From: Candidatus Woesearchaeota archaeon
GTDB lineage: Archaea > Nanobdellota > Nanobdellia > Woesearchaeales > GCA-2686295
Reading direction: 5' to 3'
Length of the DNA stretch: 64,000 bases
NCBI GenBank assembly: GCA_013202845.1
Contig: JABMPT010000005.1
Coordinates: 135,308-199,307, forward strand
Notes under the pieces: generated by a model
Told to the model about the DNA's origin: nothing
Databases searched by the model: none
What the model saw: the letters and a program-made list of their open reading frames with translations, nothing else
Translations under genes and position numbers: made by a program
Part shown: piece after piece, positions 13,669 to 22,055 of the stretch
Layout: each line of letters begins with the position of its first letter
Position numbering within the stretch: position 1 is the stretch's first letter

Positions 13669-14976
13669 TTAACTAACCCTTTTTATGTTAATATTCCTTC
13701 TCTGACTCTCTCTGTAACCATACCACAGCTCAACAACTAAAGGTGCTTTATACGCTGATTTGGCAGTAGCATACTCTAAATCATAAGTACAACTTATTTG
13801 TCCTCTACCATCTCTTAATCTTATTAGGTTGTTATCAGGTACACATCTTAACCGTTGTTGACTACCGGATAATCTTATATCTCCTAATATCACCAAATCC
13901 ATGTCTTGTGGACTTAATCTGCCTGGATAATATGGGCTGCAAAGTTCCATATATCCTGCGTTTATTACTTCCCCTCTTCCAACATTTTGCACCACTATTG
14001 TGAATATAACACTTCTAGGGGTGTTTTCCTGTATAACACGTGAAACTGCAACAGGTGCTCCTTGACTTCCTTTTAGATCTATTTGACCTGGGTAGCAGAC
14101 CTTTTCATCTTGTGAGAAAGGAGCAGGATCAATGCACACAACAGGTGTTGCATAAGTTGTGTAGATATAGCAAGAGCTCACCAAGAATGTCACATCTGTT
14201 TCGTCAAGTCCTGAAGGCCATGAATCCTTTATATGTCCCTGAAATGCTAATAATGTTGATTCGCCGCCAGGGTAATTATAATTATCAGGTGCTAGAATAA
14301 AGGACTTTCCGTTGAATCTGTCAAAGCTCAAACTGTCTAGGATAACTATTAAAGCCTGACCATGATGAAGCAAGTCCAAATCCAAGCCAAATGCTGAAAA
14401 GTCAAAATTAAAGTTAAAATGTTCTGTTCCTCTGTCCCAATTAACATCAACTTCCGGACAGCTGTCACAACCAAATAACTGGAATATATTGTTTATTCGT
14501 GTACCATCAATCAATTGTCCTGTTGTAGGATCCCCCATTATCTCAAATCCGGTTCCACTTGGAGTCCTGCAGCTTAAGAACCCTCCAATGTTATCCCAAC
14601 TTAAATCCTTTAAGTCTAAATCCACTCTACAATTATCAAACAAACCAGTATTAGTTTTAGGAATATTAATATCATCAAAGAATATCAGAGAAGGATCATA
14701 ACCTGAAACATACAAACCACCTTTAGTCCAAGAAGCCCCCTCATTTTGAAGCTCAACATCAACACTGAAAGTATTATATTCTTCTGAAGGTGCATCACCA
14801 TAGTAGTACATTCTTGGAGGTGGTGCTCCAGGATCGATAAGCATTCTAACTCCTTCTGTACCTACATAGTATCTATCTCTCTCCGGATTACTGGGATAAT
14901 CAGGTCCTCGTCCAGAACATGAAGATACTAATAAGAAAGTCAATAGTAAGATGGTTATTAAAATCCTCCTTTTCAT
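13669..14976 (-). CDS. Surface lipoprotein paralog B
   Basis: TFLLVSSC lipobox-like; YYVGTEGVRMLIDPGAPPP; CYIYTT...CIDPA...KVC...GSQGAPVAVS. Confidence 0.7.
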   Translation of the reverse strand: MKRRILITILLLTFLLVSSCSGRGPDYPSNPERDRYYVGTEGVRMLIDPGAPPPRMYYYGDAPSEEYNTFSVDVELQNEGASWTKGGLYVSGYDPSLIFFDDINIPKTNTGLFDNCRVDLDLKDLSWDNIGGFLSCRTPSGTGFEIMGDPTTGQLIDGTRINNIFQLFGCDSCPEVDVNWDRGTEHFNFNFDFSAFGLDLDLLHHGQALIVILDSLSFDRFNGKSFILAPDNYNYPGGESTLLAFQGHIKDSWPSGLDETDVTFLVSSCYIYTTYATPVVCIDPAPFSQDEKVCYPGQIDLKGSQGAPVAVSRVIQENTPRSVIFTIVVQNVGRGEVINAGYMELCSPYYPGRLSPQDMDLVILGDIRLSGSQQRLRCVPDNNLIRLRDGRGQISCTYDLEYATAKSAYKAPLVVELWYGYRESQRRNINIKRVS

Positions 14977-15010
14977 ACAACAACCTTTCTGTCCCTTTTA
15001 ATATTTAAAC

Positions 15011-16258
15011 TTATTGTTTTACACAACAAAACTTTCCTAATTCACAGAGTCCAGGACCAAAAATACAATTTCCAGATTTCAAATTCAAAGGTTCTAATAA
15101 GTTTGATATTGTGCTGGCTGTAACTTGAGTCACACATTCCTCTGCATTGCAATCACAACCCCATCCTGCATCTGCGATTGTTCCACAGAATGAGAAACCA
15201 ACTCCTCGAGCACATAAATCACAATTACTAACACACTCTCCATTAAAATCTGTCTCCCAATATTTACAACTACTTCCTGGAAGAGGTTCAAGAGGTGGAA
15301 GTCCTGATCTAATAATCTCAATCTCTTTAGATATACTAGTTAGGTAAACATAATCTAAATCAATAACCATGGTTGCATGATAATTCAATGATCCTCCGTA
15401 GAATTCTGTATTTGCTGGCAAAGTACATCTCGTGAAGCCTTTCTCATCTCTTAAGTTCACAGTTTCTGGAAAACATGAAAGTTTACTGTTTGATAAATGT
15501 GCAGTTACTTTTACTTGGTTCCAGTTCCCTTTTTTATCTGTGTCTTTCTGTAATTCACAAGCTTTTGGTAATTCTAATTCTGTTACTGGAGCAAGAACCA
15601 TGCCAGATCCTTTATTTTCAATTTTTATCAGCAATGAGGGTTGCATTACTTGTCTTGTTGCTTGCATCTCCACTTCAACATTCGTAACAGCGACAGGTGC
15701 TCCCTGACCTGTGTAAAGCTTGTCCTGGGTTTCGCACACCCTCTCTCTTGCGTCCTGCGTTAAATGGGAAGTGTCTATACAAACCTCGTCTGTTAGTTTT
15801 GTTCTGTATGGATAACAAACACTTACAAACAACTCTGTTCTTGGACTTTCTCTTTGCCCTTCAATTGGTTTAACACGAAAAATTGGCAAGATTTTTGTTT
15901 CAAAGAAACCATCTGGAGCAAGATATGACTTACCTTCTAAAGCAAACTCTAATTCATCAGAAGAAGATGTTCCTTCAGTTGGTCTAAAGTAAAAAGGATC
16001 ATAAGTATAGCTCAATAGCCCTTTGTAAGTTTCTCCATCTAGAGAAAATGTTCCTTTGTTTGAAATAAAAACTGCTAATGGAAAGTCTGTGTTTTCATAA
16101 ACCTCTCTTGGCGGTGAATCACCAATAAACTCTATTTCAACGCCCTTTGTACCAACATAAACATTTATCCTTTCAGGGTTATAAGTGCCTGAGGAGCAAG
16201 AAGTTAGAATTAACAAAAGAAGTGCTAAAAAAAAATGTGTTTTCTTTATAGATTCCAT
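15011..16258 (-). CDS. Surface lipoprotein paralog C with Cys-rich C-terminal extension
   Basis: LLLILTSC lipobox-like; YVGTKGVEIEFIGDSPP; CYPYRT...CIDTS...RVC...GQGAPVAVT; Cys-rich tail (CKYWETDFNGECVSNCDLC...CCVKQ). Confidence 0.7.
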   Translation of the reverse strand: MESIKKTHFFLALLLLILTSCSSGTYNPERINVYVGTKGVEIEFIGDSPPREVYENTDFPLAVFISNKGTFSLDGETYKGLLSYTYDPFYFRPTEGTSSSDELEFALEGKSYLAPDGFFETKILPIFRVKPIEGQRESPRTELFVSVCYPYRTKLTDEVCIDTSHLTQDARERVCETQDKLYTGQGAPVAVTNVEVEMQATRQVMQPSLLIKIENKGSGMVLAPVTELELPKACELQKDTDKKGNWNQVKVTAHLSNSKLSCFPETVNLRDEKGFTRCTLPANTEFYGGSLNYHATMVIDLDYVYLTSISKEIEIIRSGLPPLEPLPGSSCKYWETDFNGECVSNCDLCARGVGFSFCGTIADAGWGCDCNAEECVTQVTASTISNLLEPLNLKSGNCIFGPGLCELGKFCCVKQ

Positions 16259-16261
16259 TTT

Positions 16262-17965
16262 TTAATACTTTTTAATTCTTATGTTTGTTGATTTTGTTAA
16301 ACTATAATCATACTCTACTTCAACTGCAAAAGTTTTTGTCAGTTTAAGATTTGTTCCCAAGAAGTTTGCAGGGTCTCTTAGCTTCATAGGACAAGTGATT
16401 GTTTTGAATGAACCAACTAGTCCATCTGGATCAAACTCATAAATATCATATTCATCAACCCTTTGAACAGGCTCTTCAAAATTCAACGGATAACATCTAT
16501 CAAACATTATTTCTTTAGGAACCCTTATTTCTAAAGTTTGAATTTTTTCAACTTTCCCCTGCGACCAAGCATCCATAAGAGTCATGCCAAAGGTTAAGAT
16601 GTAAGGATTATCTGGATACACAATTATAGGCATATCCAAAGAATTCATTCCTATTGCAGCAGGACCACTTGTATAAATGGCTTCTGCAGTGTTTGGAATA
16701 TCAAGTTCTTGATTGATATTTTTTTTCTGGGTATAATAAGCTATTTGAGTGTCTTTGTCAACAAAGGTATATGCTATATAACCCCAAGTTGGAAAAGCAA
16801 ATTTTGACTCAAAAGTAACTGAATAAGTTCCTTCTTCAAATTGGTCAAGATTTTCTTCAAATATACATTCCAAAGTTCTTGAATCATCAAAATATAAAAA
16901 TAACTCTGTCGGATGAACCTTACCAAAGATAGAATGACTTCCTTTTCTTGCATAACATCTGTTATTGACAGTTATGGCTCCTTCAAAACTCTTTCCTCTG
17001 ATATTAGCCCACACGACTATCGGATAACCTCCTGTGAATTCTTCTTCTGTAGCACGTAAATCTTCTAGATAAACACCTAAGGGTGCATCTTTATTTCGTT
17101 CAACCTGCCCTGTAAAATAATTTGTTGATAGAGATTGATTTATCTTAAGTTCAATCTTTCCCGGCAGCATTAAAATATCTTTAACAATCTCTTTTGTATT
17201 ATCTCCAAAGGTTTCTTTTATGGTTCTCCAGGATTCTCCAACATTTGCTTGTTGAAGTCCTCCTTGAACATCCAATAATTCTGATGAAACAGCACCATAA
17301 AATCCTAGAATTACAACCACTATCAAGTACCATGTTCCAAAGTTTCTGGTACTTTCTGTTGAGTATTGACCAAACATTAAATACAAACCCCAAACAGGAA
17401 TAAAGCAGAGTGTTGCATGTACCCAAACAGGATAATCAAGAGCAAATTCTATATATCTAGGCGCCATTATAGCTAAAAGTGATATTAAAATAAGCTTGCC
17501 AGATAATTTAAGAGCTGCTTTAAAAATTCCTGCTATTGCAACAATAGTAGCGATGAAATAAATTCCTATAGTGATATTGTCTGGCATAAGAAAAAAAGAT
17601 CCTTTTGTTACGGAAGGAAAACCCATTGACCAATCTATAATATGCAAAATCCACATAAATATCAGGAACTTTCCGATTCCTGTAGGATCAGATGATTGTT
17701 TCCAACTGCCATAATATGGGTCGGTTTCTTTGTCTCTAATCTTGCTAATAGCATTTCCAAAAAACTTCATTCCTCTTGAAAAACGACCCGGAGACTTAGC
17801 TCTGTAAACACCATTAGTATCATATCCTCCAGAAGCTTTTCTTTCTTTAGAATTCTCTCTCCAGTCCTTAACCTTATTAACAACTTTATTATTAAGCAGT
17901 TTGCTATTAGAAGCTTTACTTTTTAATGTACCTAACCCCTTTTTCAATGCACCAAGAAAAGCCAT
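16262..17965 (-). CDS. Polytopic membrane protein with large extracytoplasmic C-terminal region
   Basis: Several hydrophobic segments between about residues 100 and 230, then beta-rich region ending FAVEVEYDYSLTKSTNIRIKKY, matching the lipoprotein C-terminal pattern. Confidence 0.65.
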   Translation of the reverse strand: MAFLGALKKGLGTLKSKASNSKLLNNKVVNKVKDWRENSKERKASGGYDTNGVYRAKSPGRFSRGMKFFGNAISKIRDKETDPYYGSWKQSSDPTGIGKFLIFMWILHIIDWSMGFPSVTKGSFFLMPDNITIGIYFIATIVAIAGIFKAALKLSGKLILISLLAIMAPRYIEFALDYPVWVHATLCFIPVWGLYLMFGQYSTESTRNFGTWYLIVVVILGFYGAVSSELLDVQGGLQQANVGESWRTIKETFGDNTKEIVKDILMLPGKIELKINQSLSTNYFTGQVERNKDAPLGVYLEDLRATEEEFTGGYPIVVWANIRGKSFEGAITVNNRCYARKGSHSIFGKVHPTELFLYFDDSRTLECIFEENLDQFEEGTYSVTFESKFAFPTWGYIAYTFVDKDTQIAYYTQKKNINQELDIPNTAEAIYTSGPAAIGMNSLDMPIIVYPDNPYILTFGMTLMDAWSQGKVEKIQTLEIRVPKEIMFDRCYPLNFEEPVQRVDEYDIYEFDPDGLVGSFKTITCPMKLRDPANFLGTNLKLTKTFAVEVEYDYSLTKSTNIRIKKY

Positions 17966-17967
17966 TT

Positions 17968-19155
17968 TCAGTCTTCATCCAATATCACTTTTAGTTCTGC
18001 AATGTCAACAACAGTCTGAGGCACTAATTCTAAAGAGTTTGTTCCTGAAATAACATAATCATCTAACTTCGCATCGAACTTCAACTCATCAGTTCGTATA
18101 TGCCTTCTGATTCCGTTTATATTATATTCCAACCTCTTCTCGTCATCATTGACAAATCTCAAAAACATAGTGACATTGAAGTCCTCATCTAATTCATCAT
18201 CAATAAATAATTCATCTTCAATTTCAAAATAATAAACAGGATAAAGAATCTCTTCTAACTCAGTTCTTACAGAAACCCTGTCCATAAGATAGGAACCTTC
18301 AGTGGCTACAAACTCCAATTCATTCCTATCTTCAAAAATTACTTTCTTATCCAAGAACAAGGAATTATAAATTCCACAATCAGCAACTCCGGAGAAGACT
18401 TCCTCGCCATTCAAATAAATCAACATCGGTCCGACTTCTCTTGAATCACAGTTTGGATAATACTTTAACTTAACAGCATCTAAGTTGAGTTTTTCAACAT
18501 CTGATATATAAAAGAATTGTCTGCTCCTACTGTGGGTAACATCCAAAACATCTCCTGTTATAAGAACGTTCTCCAATAAATATTCATTTGTTCTCCAGAA
18601 TGCAACTCCCGGACTAGAAACTTTGAATGCGAGAGTGTTCTGCCTGTCCAAAAACGCTTCTGGCAACTCAATAGGTGCTGGAGTTCCTTCTCTTAAAACA
18701 CCATTAAATATCTCTCTTCCATTCAAATATAGCTCTAATCTTCCTCTAGATCTTTTTACATTAAATGATAAAACAATGTTGGAAGTGTACTTTGTATCAA
18801 CCTGAAAAGTTGTGTTATAAAACTTCTTATTTCCTAAATTACTGCTAACATACAAGGAGCTTACAGATTTCAAAGCAGTTCCCTCTTTCTCAGAATAAAC
18901 CCTGAAAGAAGGAATATCATGTTCTCGATAATCAAATCTTAAATAATCCAACCTACCAATCTTTTCTTTGAGCAGAGTCTTGTTATATCCTGATTCTGTT
19001 TCATCATCATCACTATCTGTTTCGTTTTCTTCTCCTAATAACTCTGCTCTTTCCTCAGGTGGTAAGAATAATATGTATAAAACCAAGATGGCAGCTATTA
19101 TTATAATTAATATTGCTGCGCTGCCTGCACCCACTTGTTCTCCTCTTTTCTGCAT
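17968..19155 (-). CDS. Membrane-anchored surface protein with pilin-like N-terminal hydrophobic segment
   Basis: QVGAGSAAILIIIIAAILVLYILFLPP then Asp/Glu-rich linker and repeated LELYLNGREIFNG / LIYLNGEEVFSG units. Confidence 0.6.
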   Translation of the reverse strand: MQKRGEQVGAGSAAILIIIIAAILVLYILFLPPEERAELLGEENETDSDDDETESGYNKTLLKEKIGRLDYLRFDYREHDIPSFRVYSEKEGTALKSVSSLYVSSNLGNKKFYNTTFQVDTKYTSNIVLSFNVKRSRGRLELYLNGREIFNGVLREGTPAPIELPEAFLDRQNTLAFKVSSPGVAFWRTNEYLLENVLITGDVLDVTHSRSRQFFYISDVEKLNLDAVKLKYYPNCDSREVGPMLIYLNGEEVFSGVADCGIYNSLFLDKKVIFEDRNELEFVATEGSYLMDRVSVRTELEEILYPVYYFEIEDELFIDDELDEDFNVTMFLRFVNDDEKRLEYNINGIRRHIRTDELKFDAKLDDYVISGTNSLELVPQTVVDIAELKVILDED

Positions 19156-19241: not shown

Positions 19242-20291
19242 ATGAAAATAATCAAAAAAGACCTGAAAAAGCAGGAATTAACTCTTAAAATAGAGAATCT
19301 TGATGATATCTGGACACTTAACCAAATAGTGGAAGTAGGTGATACTATAAAAGGAAAAACAGAGAGAAAAATAAAGATTGGGTCTTCAGATGATAGAAAC
19401 ATAAAAGTTGTCAGAAAACATGTTTTTCTTTCAATAAAGGTTGAAAAAGCAGAAATATCAACTGATTCAAAAATACTCAAGGTTCTTGGAATTATAACTG
19501 GCGGTCCAGATGATGTACCAAGAGGAGAGCATCACAGTTTCAATCTGGAAGCAAACTCTGTTTTCACAATAATAAAAAACAAATGGCTAAATTTTCAAAT
19601 TGAAAAAATTGTAGAAGCATCAAAAGCAGCTCCATTAAAAATTCTAATGACTGTGTTTGACAGAGAAGAAGCTTACTTTGCAAAACTAAAAGGACAAGGC
19701 TATGAAATGCTTGGAAAGATAATAGGCGACGTTCAGAAAAAAGAGGAAAAACATGTTTCAAAAGATAACTTTTACAAAGAAATCAGTAAAAAAATAGAAG
19801 AGTATGAAAAATCTGGAGACATAAACAACATAATTCTTGGTAGCCCTGGTTTCTGGAAAGAAAACCTTATGAAGGTGCTGCCTGATGAAATAAAAAAGAA
19901 GTCTGTTCTAGCAACTGTTTCCTATGTAAGTGAAAGAGCCATGTCTGAGTTATTGAAAAGGGATGAATTACAAAAAGTATTGGAGAAAAACATGGGTTCA
20001 CAAGAGATAAAACTCATGGATAAATTGCTTCAGAACATATCAAAAGATACTGCTTGCTACGGATTTAAAGAAACCAAAGAAAAAGTTGAAGCGGGGGCCG
20101 TCAGTGAACTCTTGGTTAGTTATTCTTTCTTACAGCAAGCGAAAGAGAAAAATAATTACGAAGAATTAGAGAAACTCATGATTGCTTGCGAGCAAATGGA
20201 TGGAAAAATCCACATTATTAGTTCTGAAGAAGCAAAAAAGAGTCTTGACTCTCTTTCAGGTATTGCAGGAATTCTAAGATGGAAAGCTTAG
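19242..20291 (+). CDS. pelA: mRNA surveillance protein pelota (Dom34)
   Basis: MKIIKKDLKKQELTLKIENLDDIWTLNQIVEVGD; full-length pelota/aRF1-like architecture. Confidence 0.92.
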   Translation: MKIIKKDLKKQELTLKIENLDDIWTLNQIVEVGDTIKGKTERKIKIGSSDDRNIKVVRKHVFLSIKVEKAEISTDSKILKVLGIITGGPDDVPRGEHHSFNLEANSVFTIIKNKWLNFQIEKIVEASKAAPLKILMTVFDREEAYFAKLKGQGYEMLGKIIGDVQKKEEKHVSKDNFYKEISKKIEEYEKSGDINNIILGSPGFWKENLMKVLPDEIKKKSVLATVSYVSERAMSELLKRDELQKVLEKNMGSQEIKLMDKLLQNISKDTACYGFKETKEKVEAGAVSELLVSYSFLQQAKEKNNYEELEKLMIACEQMDGKIHIISSEEAKKSLDSLSGIAGILRWKA

Positions 20292-21148
20292 TACAAGATA
20301 TACTTTCAAAAAAGGAATTGAAAAATCTAGATAAAAAACTAGTTGAAGAAGAACTGGAGAAATATTTTGAAAGAAACAGGAAGATGAGAGCTGTTCTTGT
20401 AAATAAGGGTTTCAATAAGAGAAGTAAGGAGTATAAAACAGTTACCAAAGATATCAGAAAAACATTAAGAGAGATATATGGTGTTTTCATCCAAAAAAAC
20501 TATTCTAGAAGAGAGAAACTGTTATCAAAAATCAAAAAAGAGAACAAAGAAGAAACAATAAAACAAATATTGCTTCTACACCAGTCAACAAAGGAGAGAC
20601 TGCAATATTACAAAGAAATCTACAAAAAATTGTTTAAGATTACAGGAAAGCAAAAAACAATTCTAGATTTGGCTTGCGGACTTAATCCTCTAAGCTATTT
20701 TTGGCTTGGATACAAACCAAAATACATTGCTTCAGAGATTTCTTCAAAAGATCTTGAATTCATACAAGAATTCTTCAAAAAAACAGCTATTTCAGGAAAA
20801 ACCATTCAGATAGATCTTGTCACAGAGCAAAAAAAACTTAAAAGTGTCAAAGCAGATATTTGTTTCCTCTTCAAAGCACTTGATTCCTTGGAAGCAAGAA
20901 AAAAGAACATCTCCAAAACCTTGATTGAAGAAGTTAATGCCAAGTGGATTGTTATATCTTTTTCAAAAATCAGTTTGGGTGGTAAGAAAAACATCCAAAA
21001 ATCAAAGAGAAACTGGATTACAAACTTTCTAAAAAGCAAAAACTATTACTACCGTGAATTCGAAGTACCTAATGAACACTTCTTAGTTGTTAAAAAAAAG
21101 TTCTCGACGAGAAAAAACCATAAAGTTTTTAAAAGAGATAACTTTTGA
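20279..21148 (+). CDS. ArmA/Rmt (FmrO)-family-like 16S rRNA (guanine-N7) methyltransferase homolog
   Basis: LHQSTKERLQYYKEIYKKLFKITGKQKTILDLACGLNPLSYFWL and WIVISFSKISLGGKKN...NWITNFL resemble ArmA/Rmt motifs. Confidence 0.65.
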   Translation: MESLVQDILSKKELKNLDKKLVEEELEKYFERNRKMRAVLVNKGFNKRSKEYKTVTKDIRKTLREIYGVFIQKNYSRREKLLSKIKKENKEETIKQILLLHQSTKERLQYYKEIYKKLFKITGKQKTILDLACGLNPLSYFWLGYKPKYIASEISSKDLEFIQEFFKKTAISGKTIQIDLVTEQKKLKSVKADICFLFKALDSLEARKKNISKTLIEEVNAKWIVISFSKISLGGKKNIQKSKRNWITNFLKSKNYYYREFEVPNEHFLVVKKKFSTRKNHKVFKRDNF

Positions 21149-21248: not shown

Positions 21249-22055
21249 ATGATAGTTAAAGAAGAATTTCTGAGCAAACTGAGAAGGTATTTCTCACTTA
21301 ATCTGTATGAGGTTAAGATTTGGACTGCTCTTCTTTCACGAGGGGTGAGCACCGCGGGTGAGTTGAGTGACATAGCAAATGTACCAAGAAGCAGAAGCTA
21401 CGACGTTCTAGAAAGCCTAGAAAAAAAAGGCTTTGTAGTGATGAAGATTGGCAAACCAATAAAATATTTGGCAGTACCGCCAAAAGAGGTTGTAGAGAGA
21501 GTCAAAAAGAATGTAAAATCAGCTGCAGATAAACAAGTTGATAGACTTGAAAACTTAAAAAACACTGATGTTGTAACAGAGCTTAACTCTTTGCATACAC
21601 AAGGTGTTGAACTTATAGAACCTTCAGATCTTTCAGGATCTTTAAGAGGAAGACATAATCTATACAACCATTTGGAGTTGACGATAAAGAATGCAGAGAA
21701 AACAGTTACTATAATGACTACTTCTCAAGGATTGATGAGAAAAGTGGAAGGTTTAATGCCTGTATTTGAAGAAGTTAAAAAAAGAGGCGTTAAGATAAGA
21801 ATTGCTGCGCCTTTAACCAAAGAGTCTATGGAAGCTGCAAAAGCAGTCAAAGGGGTGGCTGAAGTACGAAATACAGATAAAAAGGCCAGATTCACAGTTG
21901 TTGATGGAAAAGAAGTGGTGTTCATGGTTATGGACGATTCAGAAGTACATCCAACTTATGACATAGGTATCTGGATAAACACGCCTTTCTTTGCTTCTGC
22001 ACTTGAAGATTTATTCGAGCTTGCATGGGCTGCTATGAAGCCTATTAAGGCTTAA
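21249..22055 (+). CDS. TrmB-family transcriptional regulator, copy 1
   Basis: wHTH (YEVKIWTALLSRGVSTAGELSDIANVPRSRSYDVLESLEKKGFV) plus C-terminal PLD-like sensor domain; AGGAGG SD upstream. Confidence 0.85.
   Translation: MIVKEEFLSKLRRYFSLNLYEVKIWTALLSRGVSTAGELSDIANVPRSRSYDVLESLEKKGFVVMKIGKPIKYLAVPPKEVVERVKKNVKSAADKQVDRLENLKNTDVVTELNSLHTQGVELIEPSDLSGSLRGRHNLYNHLELTIKNAEKTVTIMTTSQGLMRKVEGLMPVFEEVKKRGVKIRIAAPLTKESMEAAKAVKGVAEVRNTDKKARFTVVDGKEVVFMVMDDSEVHPTYDIGIWINTPFFASALEDLFELAWAAMKPIKA

What the first reader, a model, noticed from the sequence alone, without database searches (positions are those of the whole stretch)
20279..21148. Archaeal homolog of ArmA/Rmt aminoglycoside-resistance 16S rRNA methyltransferases, overlapping pelota
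The protein has LHQSTKERL...ILDLACGLNPLSYF and WIVISFSKISLGGKK, very like the STxER, ILDxxCGxNPL and ISFPxKSLxGK segments I recall from ArmA/Rmt (FmrO family, m7G1405 of 16S rRNA). The N-terminal V.DIL..K..KNLD..LVE pattern also fits. It overlaps the 3' end of pelA by 13 nt, so it is probably co-expressed with a ribosome-rescue factor. Possible roles are constitutive decoding-centre modification, ribosome quality control, or an ancient source of the resistance family.
Basis: partly seen in the sequence, partly recalled or inferred. Interest (0 to 1): 0.72.

Follow-up and report, generated by a model that had tools for sequence, protein, structure and literature searches.

The report
Archaeal decoding-site rRNA methyltransferase next to pelota
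A DPANN archaeon carries, as an ordinary chromosomal gene, a relative of the enzymes that make hospital bacteria resistant to aminoglycosides by methylating the ribosome; about half of its phylum has it, often among ribosome-related genes, so it looks like routine ribosome maintenance rather than drug resistance.

Summary
ORF 20279-21148 (+, 289 aa) belongs to the FmrO/Arm superfamily of 16S rRNA m7G1405 methyltransferases: Pfam FmrO 89.9 bits (cut-off 27), profile-profile probability 100% with plasmid Rmt proteins over the whole length, and a confident predicted fold whose 16 best PDB matches are all G1405 enzymes. Cofactor and catalytic columns are shared. It overlaps pelota by 13 nt; pelota is directly upstream in all 8 genomes of its family and in several further families. 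It does not meet the NCBIfam cut-off for named Rmt resistance proteins, and in the tree it belongs to an archaea-only group, so it is neither a relocated resistance gene nor a visible source of one. About half of the near-complete genomes of its phylum have it, normally one copy; in some lineages the neighbour is a Pno1/Dim2-type KH gene with aIF1A. Bacterial chromosomal relatives sit beside tgt, ThrRS or an RsmB/F-type 16S methyltransferase. Best reading: a constitutive decoding-centre methyltransferase acting in small-subunit maturation; activity and target are inferred. Homologs in two nanoarchaea were already reported in 2013 (Podar et al.), so it is a new member of a known kind. I did not find the breadth or the linkages in the papers searched.

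The parts
20279..21148 (+). FmrO/Arm-superfamily 16S rRNA methyltransferase gene (289 aa)
19242..20291 (+). pelota (archaeal Dom34) gene, ribosome rescue factor; 3' end overlaps the methyltransferase gene
   Evidence: eRF1_1, eRF1_2 and eRF1_3 over Pfam cut-offs
20279..20291 (+). 13-nt overlap of pelota and the methyltransferase gene; the same 13-nt overlap in 9 of 26 distinct loci with pelota upstream
20579..20602 (+). motif HQSTKERL (aa 101-108); its arginine aligns with Sgm R108, recalled as a SAM contact
20660..20689 (+). SAM-binding motif ILDLACGLNP (aa 128-137)
   Evidence: D130, G134, N136 and P137 invariant in the 27-row archaeal alignment and matched in bacteria
20954..20989 (+). motif ISFSKISLGGKK (aa 226-237); S227 and F228 nearly invariant
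21249..22055 (+). TrmB-type transcription regulator, a frequent downstream neighbour in pelota-linked loci; probably a separate unit
   Evidence: Pfam TrmB; TrmBL2-like relative downstream on the same strand in 21 of 133 distinct loci

Best explanation
The gene encodes a constitutive, SAM-dependent methyltransferase of the archaeal small ribosomal subunit. Shown: it has the complete two-part architecture (N-terminal helical domain of the kind that binds 30S in the bacterial enzymes, plus a Rossmann methyltransferase domain) and the shared cofactor and catalytic columns of the m7G1405 family; it is a widespread, chromosomal, normally single-copy gene; and it sits in two different translation or ribosome-maturation neighbourhoods. 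Inferred: during late 30S maturation it binds helix 44 through its N-terminal domain and methylates N7 of G1405 (E. coli numbering) in the decoding centre, tuning or checking that site before the subunit enters translation. Co-expression with pelota (own family) or with a Pno1/Dim2-type KH protein and aIF1A (other lineages) would match its supply to subunit maturation and recycling. Resistance to 4,6-linked aminoglycosides may be a by-product.
For: Family: top 16 PDB matches are all G1405 methyltransferases; probability 100, E=1.6e-45 over residues 4-271. Conserved residues across archaea and bacteria. Predicted fold pLDDT 92.3, pTM 0.87. Prevalence: 173 of 371 genomes with Pfam, about 141 of 277 near-complete genomes with the archaeal profile when only matches below 1e-20 are counted; 8 of 8 in its family. 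Neighbourhoods among 133 distinct loci: pelota directly upstream in 24, KH directly upstream in 14, with aIF1A, NMD3-like and Top6B around it. Bacterial relatives next to tgt in at least 29 of 38, ThrRS in 6, RsmB/F in 2. Target base G1405 present in all 30 class-level 16S genes read. Pno1 and Dom34 both act in yeast 40S maturation and its surveillance (PMC11045238).
Against: No activity or modification data exist. About half of the phylum lacks the gene, so it is not universally needed. G1405 is also present in genomes without the gene, so the target gives no discrimination. The window's own 16S gene is cut before helix 44 in this assembly. Many archaeal loci (about 95 of 133) have neither the pelota nor the KH gene directly upstream. 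Bacterial enzymes do not methylate yeast 40S despite a nearly identical site (PMC2791848), so substrate specificity cannot be assumed. The archaeal group differs from bacteria at some positions, for example R or H at residue 64 where bacteria have H, and R244 and W246.
Confidence: 0.7

Rival explanations
1. It is an rRNA methyltransferase of this fold, but the archaeal branch has moved to another nucleotide or another RNA, such as a neighbouring helix 44 base or another 16S guanosine.
For: Archaea-specific conserved residues (R244, W246, D202, loss of strict H64) and deep separation from the bacterial branch.
Against: All cofactor and catalytic columns are shared, the N-terminal domain is retained, and every characterised member known to me modifies G1405.
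Confidence: 0.15
2. It is an intrinsic antibiotic-resistance gene that protects the archaeon against aminoglycoside-like compounds made by neighbours.
For: Closest characterised relatives are resistance enzymes from producers (Sgm) and plasmids (Rmt, ArmA). About half of the phylum lacks it.
Against: No mobile or antibiotic-cluster context at the loci examined; fixed in whole families and overlapping ribosome-related genes; below the NCBIfam cut-off for named Rmt proteins.
Confidence: 0.1
3. It is a ribosome quality-control enzyme working with pelota, marking or repairing stalled small subunits.
For: 13-nt overlap with pelota; pelota directly upstream in 8 of 8 family genomes and in further families. 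Dom34 splits defective and pre-40S particles in yeast (PMC11045238).
Against: Most carriers lack the pelota linkage; in other lineages the partner is the KH/aIF1A group.
Confidence: 0.05

Closest known systems
Arm/Rmt acquired 16S rRNA (guanine1405-N7)-methyltransferases (ArmA, RmtA to RmtH)
   Same: Fold, N-terminal domain, STxER, DxxCGxNP, SF and NE motifs, SAM-contact columns
   Different: 20-30% identity, below NCBIfam cut-offs, chromosomal, separate branch
Sgm/FmrO-type self-protection methyltransferases of aminoglycoside-producing actinomycetes
   Same: Best single PDB match by sequence and by structure
   Different: No antibiotic-synthesis context; archaeal branch
rRNA (guanine1405-N7)-methyltransferase homolog of Nanoarchaeum equitans and nanoarchaeon Nst1 (Podar et al. 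2013, PMC3655853)
   Same: Related archaea and the same assigned family
   Different: That paper found it only in two nanoarchaea; here it is in about half of the phylum with described neighbourhoods. Direct sequence comparison with those two proteins was not made.
Chromosomal FmrO relatives of Chloroflexota and Gemmatimonadota
   Same: Same Pfam family; next to RNA-modification or translation genes
   Different: Neighbour is tgt rather than pelota or KH; patchier (51 of 251 and 6 of 64 genomes)

Membership tests
FmrO/Arm superfamily (Pfam PF07091) | Profile score over the curated cut-off | tested here: met
   89.9 bits against 27
FmrO/Arm superfamily (Pfam PF07091) | N-terminal helical domain plus Rossmann methyltransferase domain with the G1405-enzyme fold | tested here: met
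   Prediction pLDDT 92.3; top 16 PDB matches are Sgm, RmtC, RmtF, RmtB and ArmA; hhalign covers residues 4-271
FmrO/Arm superfamily (Pfam PF07091) | Conserved SAM-binding and catalytic columns | tested here: met
   R107, D130, G134, N136, P137, D179, K199, S227, F228 and E266 match the dominant residues of bacterial and plasmid enzymes; residue 153 is E where bacteria have D (D and E both common in archaea)
FmrO/Arm superfamily (Pfam PF07091) | Substrate base G1405 present in the 16S rRNA of carriers | tested here: inconclusive
   Present in all 30 class-level 16S genes read; own 16S gene truncated before helix 44
FmrO/Arm superfamily (Pfam PF07091) | Methylation of N7 of G1405 | not testable with these tools
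   Needs biochemistry or mass spectrometry
Acquired Rmt resistance proteins (NCBIfam NF000466 and exception models) | Curated equivalog cut-off | tested here: not met
   148.6 bits against 250; named Rmt models 46-67 bits against 500 or more
Acquired Rmt resistance proteins (NCBIfam NF000466 and exception models) | Mobile or resistance-island context | tested here: not met
   Chromosomal, overlapping pelota, present in 8 of 8 family genomes
Acquired Rmt resistance proteins (NCBIfam NF000466 and exception models) | High-level aminoglycoside resistance | not testable with these tools
   Needs a bench test

The most novel reading that the evidence does not exclude
m7G1405, known as an antibiotic-resistance mark, is a normal constituent of the decoding centre in a large group of DPANN archaea and in some Chloroflexota and Gemmatimonadota; the family is at root a ribosome-maturation family and the clinical resistance genes are derived from its bacterial chromosomal branch.
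Probability: 0.5. Interest if true: 0.68.

Novelty: new member of a known kind. Interest (0 to 1): 0.46.

Why it matters
If the mark is constitutive in these archaea, a modification treated as a drug-resistance device would have a housekeeping role in the decoding centre. The origin of ArmA/Rmt genes could then be studied in their chromosomal relatives. It also marks a likely lineage-specific step in small-subunit maturation in DPANN archaea, whose ribosome biology is little known.

Tried and rejected
Single-sequence scan of genome contigs found no relatives; the alignment-based scan worked. Archaeal origin of clinical Rmt genes: not supported by the tree or by tgt synteny. Loss of the target base in genomes without the gene: rejected, G1405 is kept. 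Presence in another archaeal phylum through a record labelled Parvarchaeota: it gave the same group of genomes as the window's phylum. Other archaeal phyla could not be used as search centres; the three well-known archaea among the control genomes were negative. RNA families near the locus: none. Sigma-70-type promoter scan: no clear excess over shuffles and not meaningful for archaea. Weak matches (1e-3 to 1e-6) were treated as other methyltransferases and not counted. A first version of the neighbour count had a sign error and was replaced. Structure papers on Sgm and RmtC were not held, so residue roles from them are recalled, not checked.

Full report
OBSERVATION. The window holds an ATG-started ORF of 289 aa at 20279-21148 (+), directly after and overlapping by 13 nt the pelota ORF 19242-20291. 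The pelota call is secure: eRF1_1, eRF1_2 and eRF1_3 all exceed Pfam cut-offs. The next gene, 21249-22055, is a TrmB-type regulator.

FAMILY. Pfam FmrO (PF07091) matches with 89.9 bits against a cut-off of 27. Among NCBIfam models the general Rmt model gives 148.6 bits (E=2e-43), yet its cut-off is 250, so it is not a named Rmt protein. In the PDB by sequence the best match is Sgm (3.2e-22), followed by RmtF, RmtC, ArmA and RmtB. A prediction from 27 archaeal sequences is confident (pLDDT 92.3, pTM 0.87), and its sixteen best Foldseek matches are all G1405 methyltransferases, with a clear gap to the next methyltransferase (1.9e-10 to 2.1e-7). A profile comparison with five plasmid enzymes gives probability 100 and E=1.6e-45 over residues 4-271, so the N-terminal domain is included.

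RESIDUES. In the 27-row archaeal alignment K57, R107, D130, G134, N136, P137, Y149, K199 and E266 are invariant. The same columns are dominant in bacterial and plasmid enzymes. By the alignment with Sgm, and allowing for a 7-residue offset of the PDB chain that I infer, R107, E153, D179 and K199 correspond to Sgm R108, D156, D182 and K199, which I recall as cofactor or catalytic residues; that recollection could not be checked because the papers were not held. Differences also exist: bacteria have an invariant H where archaea have R or H (residue 64), P where archaea have D (residue 202), and archaea have their own R244 and W246.

DISTRIBUTION. The own genome has one copy. Pfam finds the family in 173 of 371 genomes of the phylum and in 8 of 8 of its family. 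With the archaeal profile, 162 of 277 near-complete genomes match at 1e-3; leaving out 21 weak matches gives about 141 (51%). Presence follows clades: family f1 8 of 8, most of f10 and f65, while none of the listed members of f4, f32 or f63 has a strong match. Well-known control genomes, including three archaea, are negative. A pattern scan of 85,000 species genomes returned 77 archaeal loci, nearly all labelled Nanoarchaeota, Woesearchaeota or a related DPANN group, among its best 80, and three bacterial ones.

NEIGHBOURHOOD IN ARCHAEA. Among 133 distinct loci, pelota lies on the same strand within 300 nt upstream in 24; 18 overlap, nine of them by exactly 13 nt. In 14 others the gene directly upstream is a KH protein of the universal archaeal type (TIGR03665/arCOG04150, with KRR1 and PNO1 KH domains), often preceded by aIF1A and an NMD3-like gene and followed by topoisomerase VI B and A. 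So in different lineages the gene keeps company with small-subunit maturation, initiation or ribosome-splitting factors; the remaining loci, about 95, have neither partner directly upstream. In yeast, Pno1 and Dom34 both act in 40S maturation and its surveillance (PMC11045238). Shared ancestry means the loci are not independent, so no probability is attached.

BACTERIAL RELATIVES. The family occurs in 51 of 251 Chloroflexota and 6 of 64 Gemmatimonadota genomes. At least 29 of 38 loci have a tgt gene upstream, mostly directly adjacent; the six Gemmatimonadota loci have ThrRS downstream; two Anaerolineaceae loci carry two tandem copies followed by an RsmB/F-type 16S methyltransferase. The plasmid genes rmtD2 and rmtG still have tgt upstream. 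This is the synteny of a chromosomal RNA-modification unit from which those resistance genes were probably taken.

TREE. In a 111-row tree all 74 archaeal proteins are one side of a branch with support 99/89, and all six resistance proteins lie on the other side with the bacterial chromosomal proteins. Many inner branches are weak, the bootstrap had not settled, and the root is unknown, so the direction of the ancient split cannot be told. A recent transfer in either direction between archaea and the clinical genes is not supported.

TARGET. Thirty full 16S genes from the class, from carriers and non-carriers, all keep G1405 and A1408; a few have C1400U or C1404U. This permits the proposed target but does not discriminate. 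The window's own 16S gene ends before helix 44 in this assembly.

MECHANISM. The most likely role is constitutive N7 methylation of G1405 during small-subunit maturation (0.7). The fold, residues and neighbourhoods are shown; the reaction, the target and its timing are inferred. Bacterial Sgm and KgmB fail on yeast 40S subunits despite a near-identical site (PMC2791848), so activity on archaeal 30S has to be tested. In bacteria G1405 methylation interferes with the housekeeping methylations at C1402 and C1407 (PMC12406665); a lineage that carries the enzyme constitutively would have to be adapted to it.

PRIOR WORK. Podar et al. 2013 (PMC3655853) reported that N. equitans and Nst1 encode an rRNA (guanine1405-N7)-methyltransferase not seen in other archaea at the time. 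The gene is therefore a new member of a known kind. The spread through the phylum and the pelota and KH/aIF1A neighbourhoods were not found in the papers searched, which is a limited library.

Noticed in passing
L195:6902-11082 and L193: Anaerolineaceae chromosomes carry tgt, two tandem FmrO genes and an RsmB/F-type 16S rRNA methyltransferase in one run of genes.
   Followed up: partly
L196:1-1145 and L200:1-1055: Plasmid rmtD2 and rmtG are preceded by tgt, as in chromosomal Chloroflexota and Gemmatimonadota relatives, pointing to their source.
   Followed up: partly
L037:8624-9406 (genome G035) and L011 (genome G247): A second FmrO copy branches between the archaeal and bacterial groups; in G035 it lies next to a RuBisCO large-chain gene.
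   Followed up: no
L067:5392-6774: FmrO domain fused to a second SAM-dependent methyltransferase domain (Methyltransf_11), just after pelota.
   Followed up: no
L212, L219 (C1404U); L213, L219, L228, L230 (C1400U): Unusual bases in the otherwise highly conserved helix 44 decoding region of some archaea of this class.
   Followed up: no
window 13669-19155, - strand: Four consecutive large ORFs, several with signal-like or membrane-like N-termini, with no Pfam family over its cut-off; relatives of the last one lie opposite pelota in other genomes.
   Followed up: no
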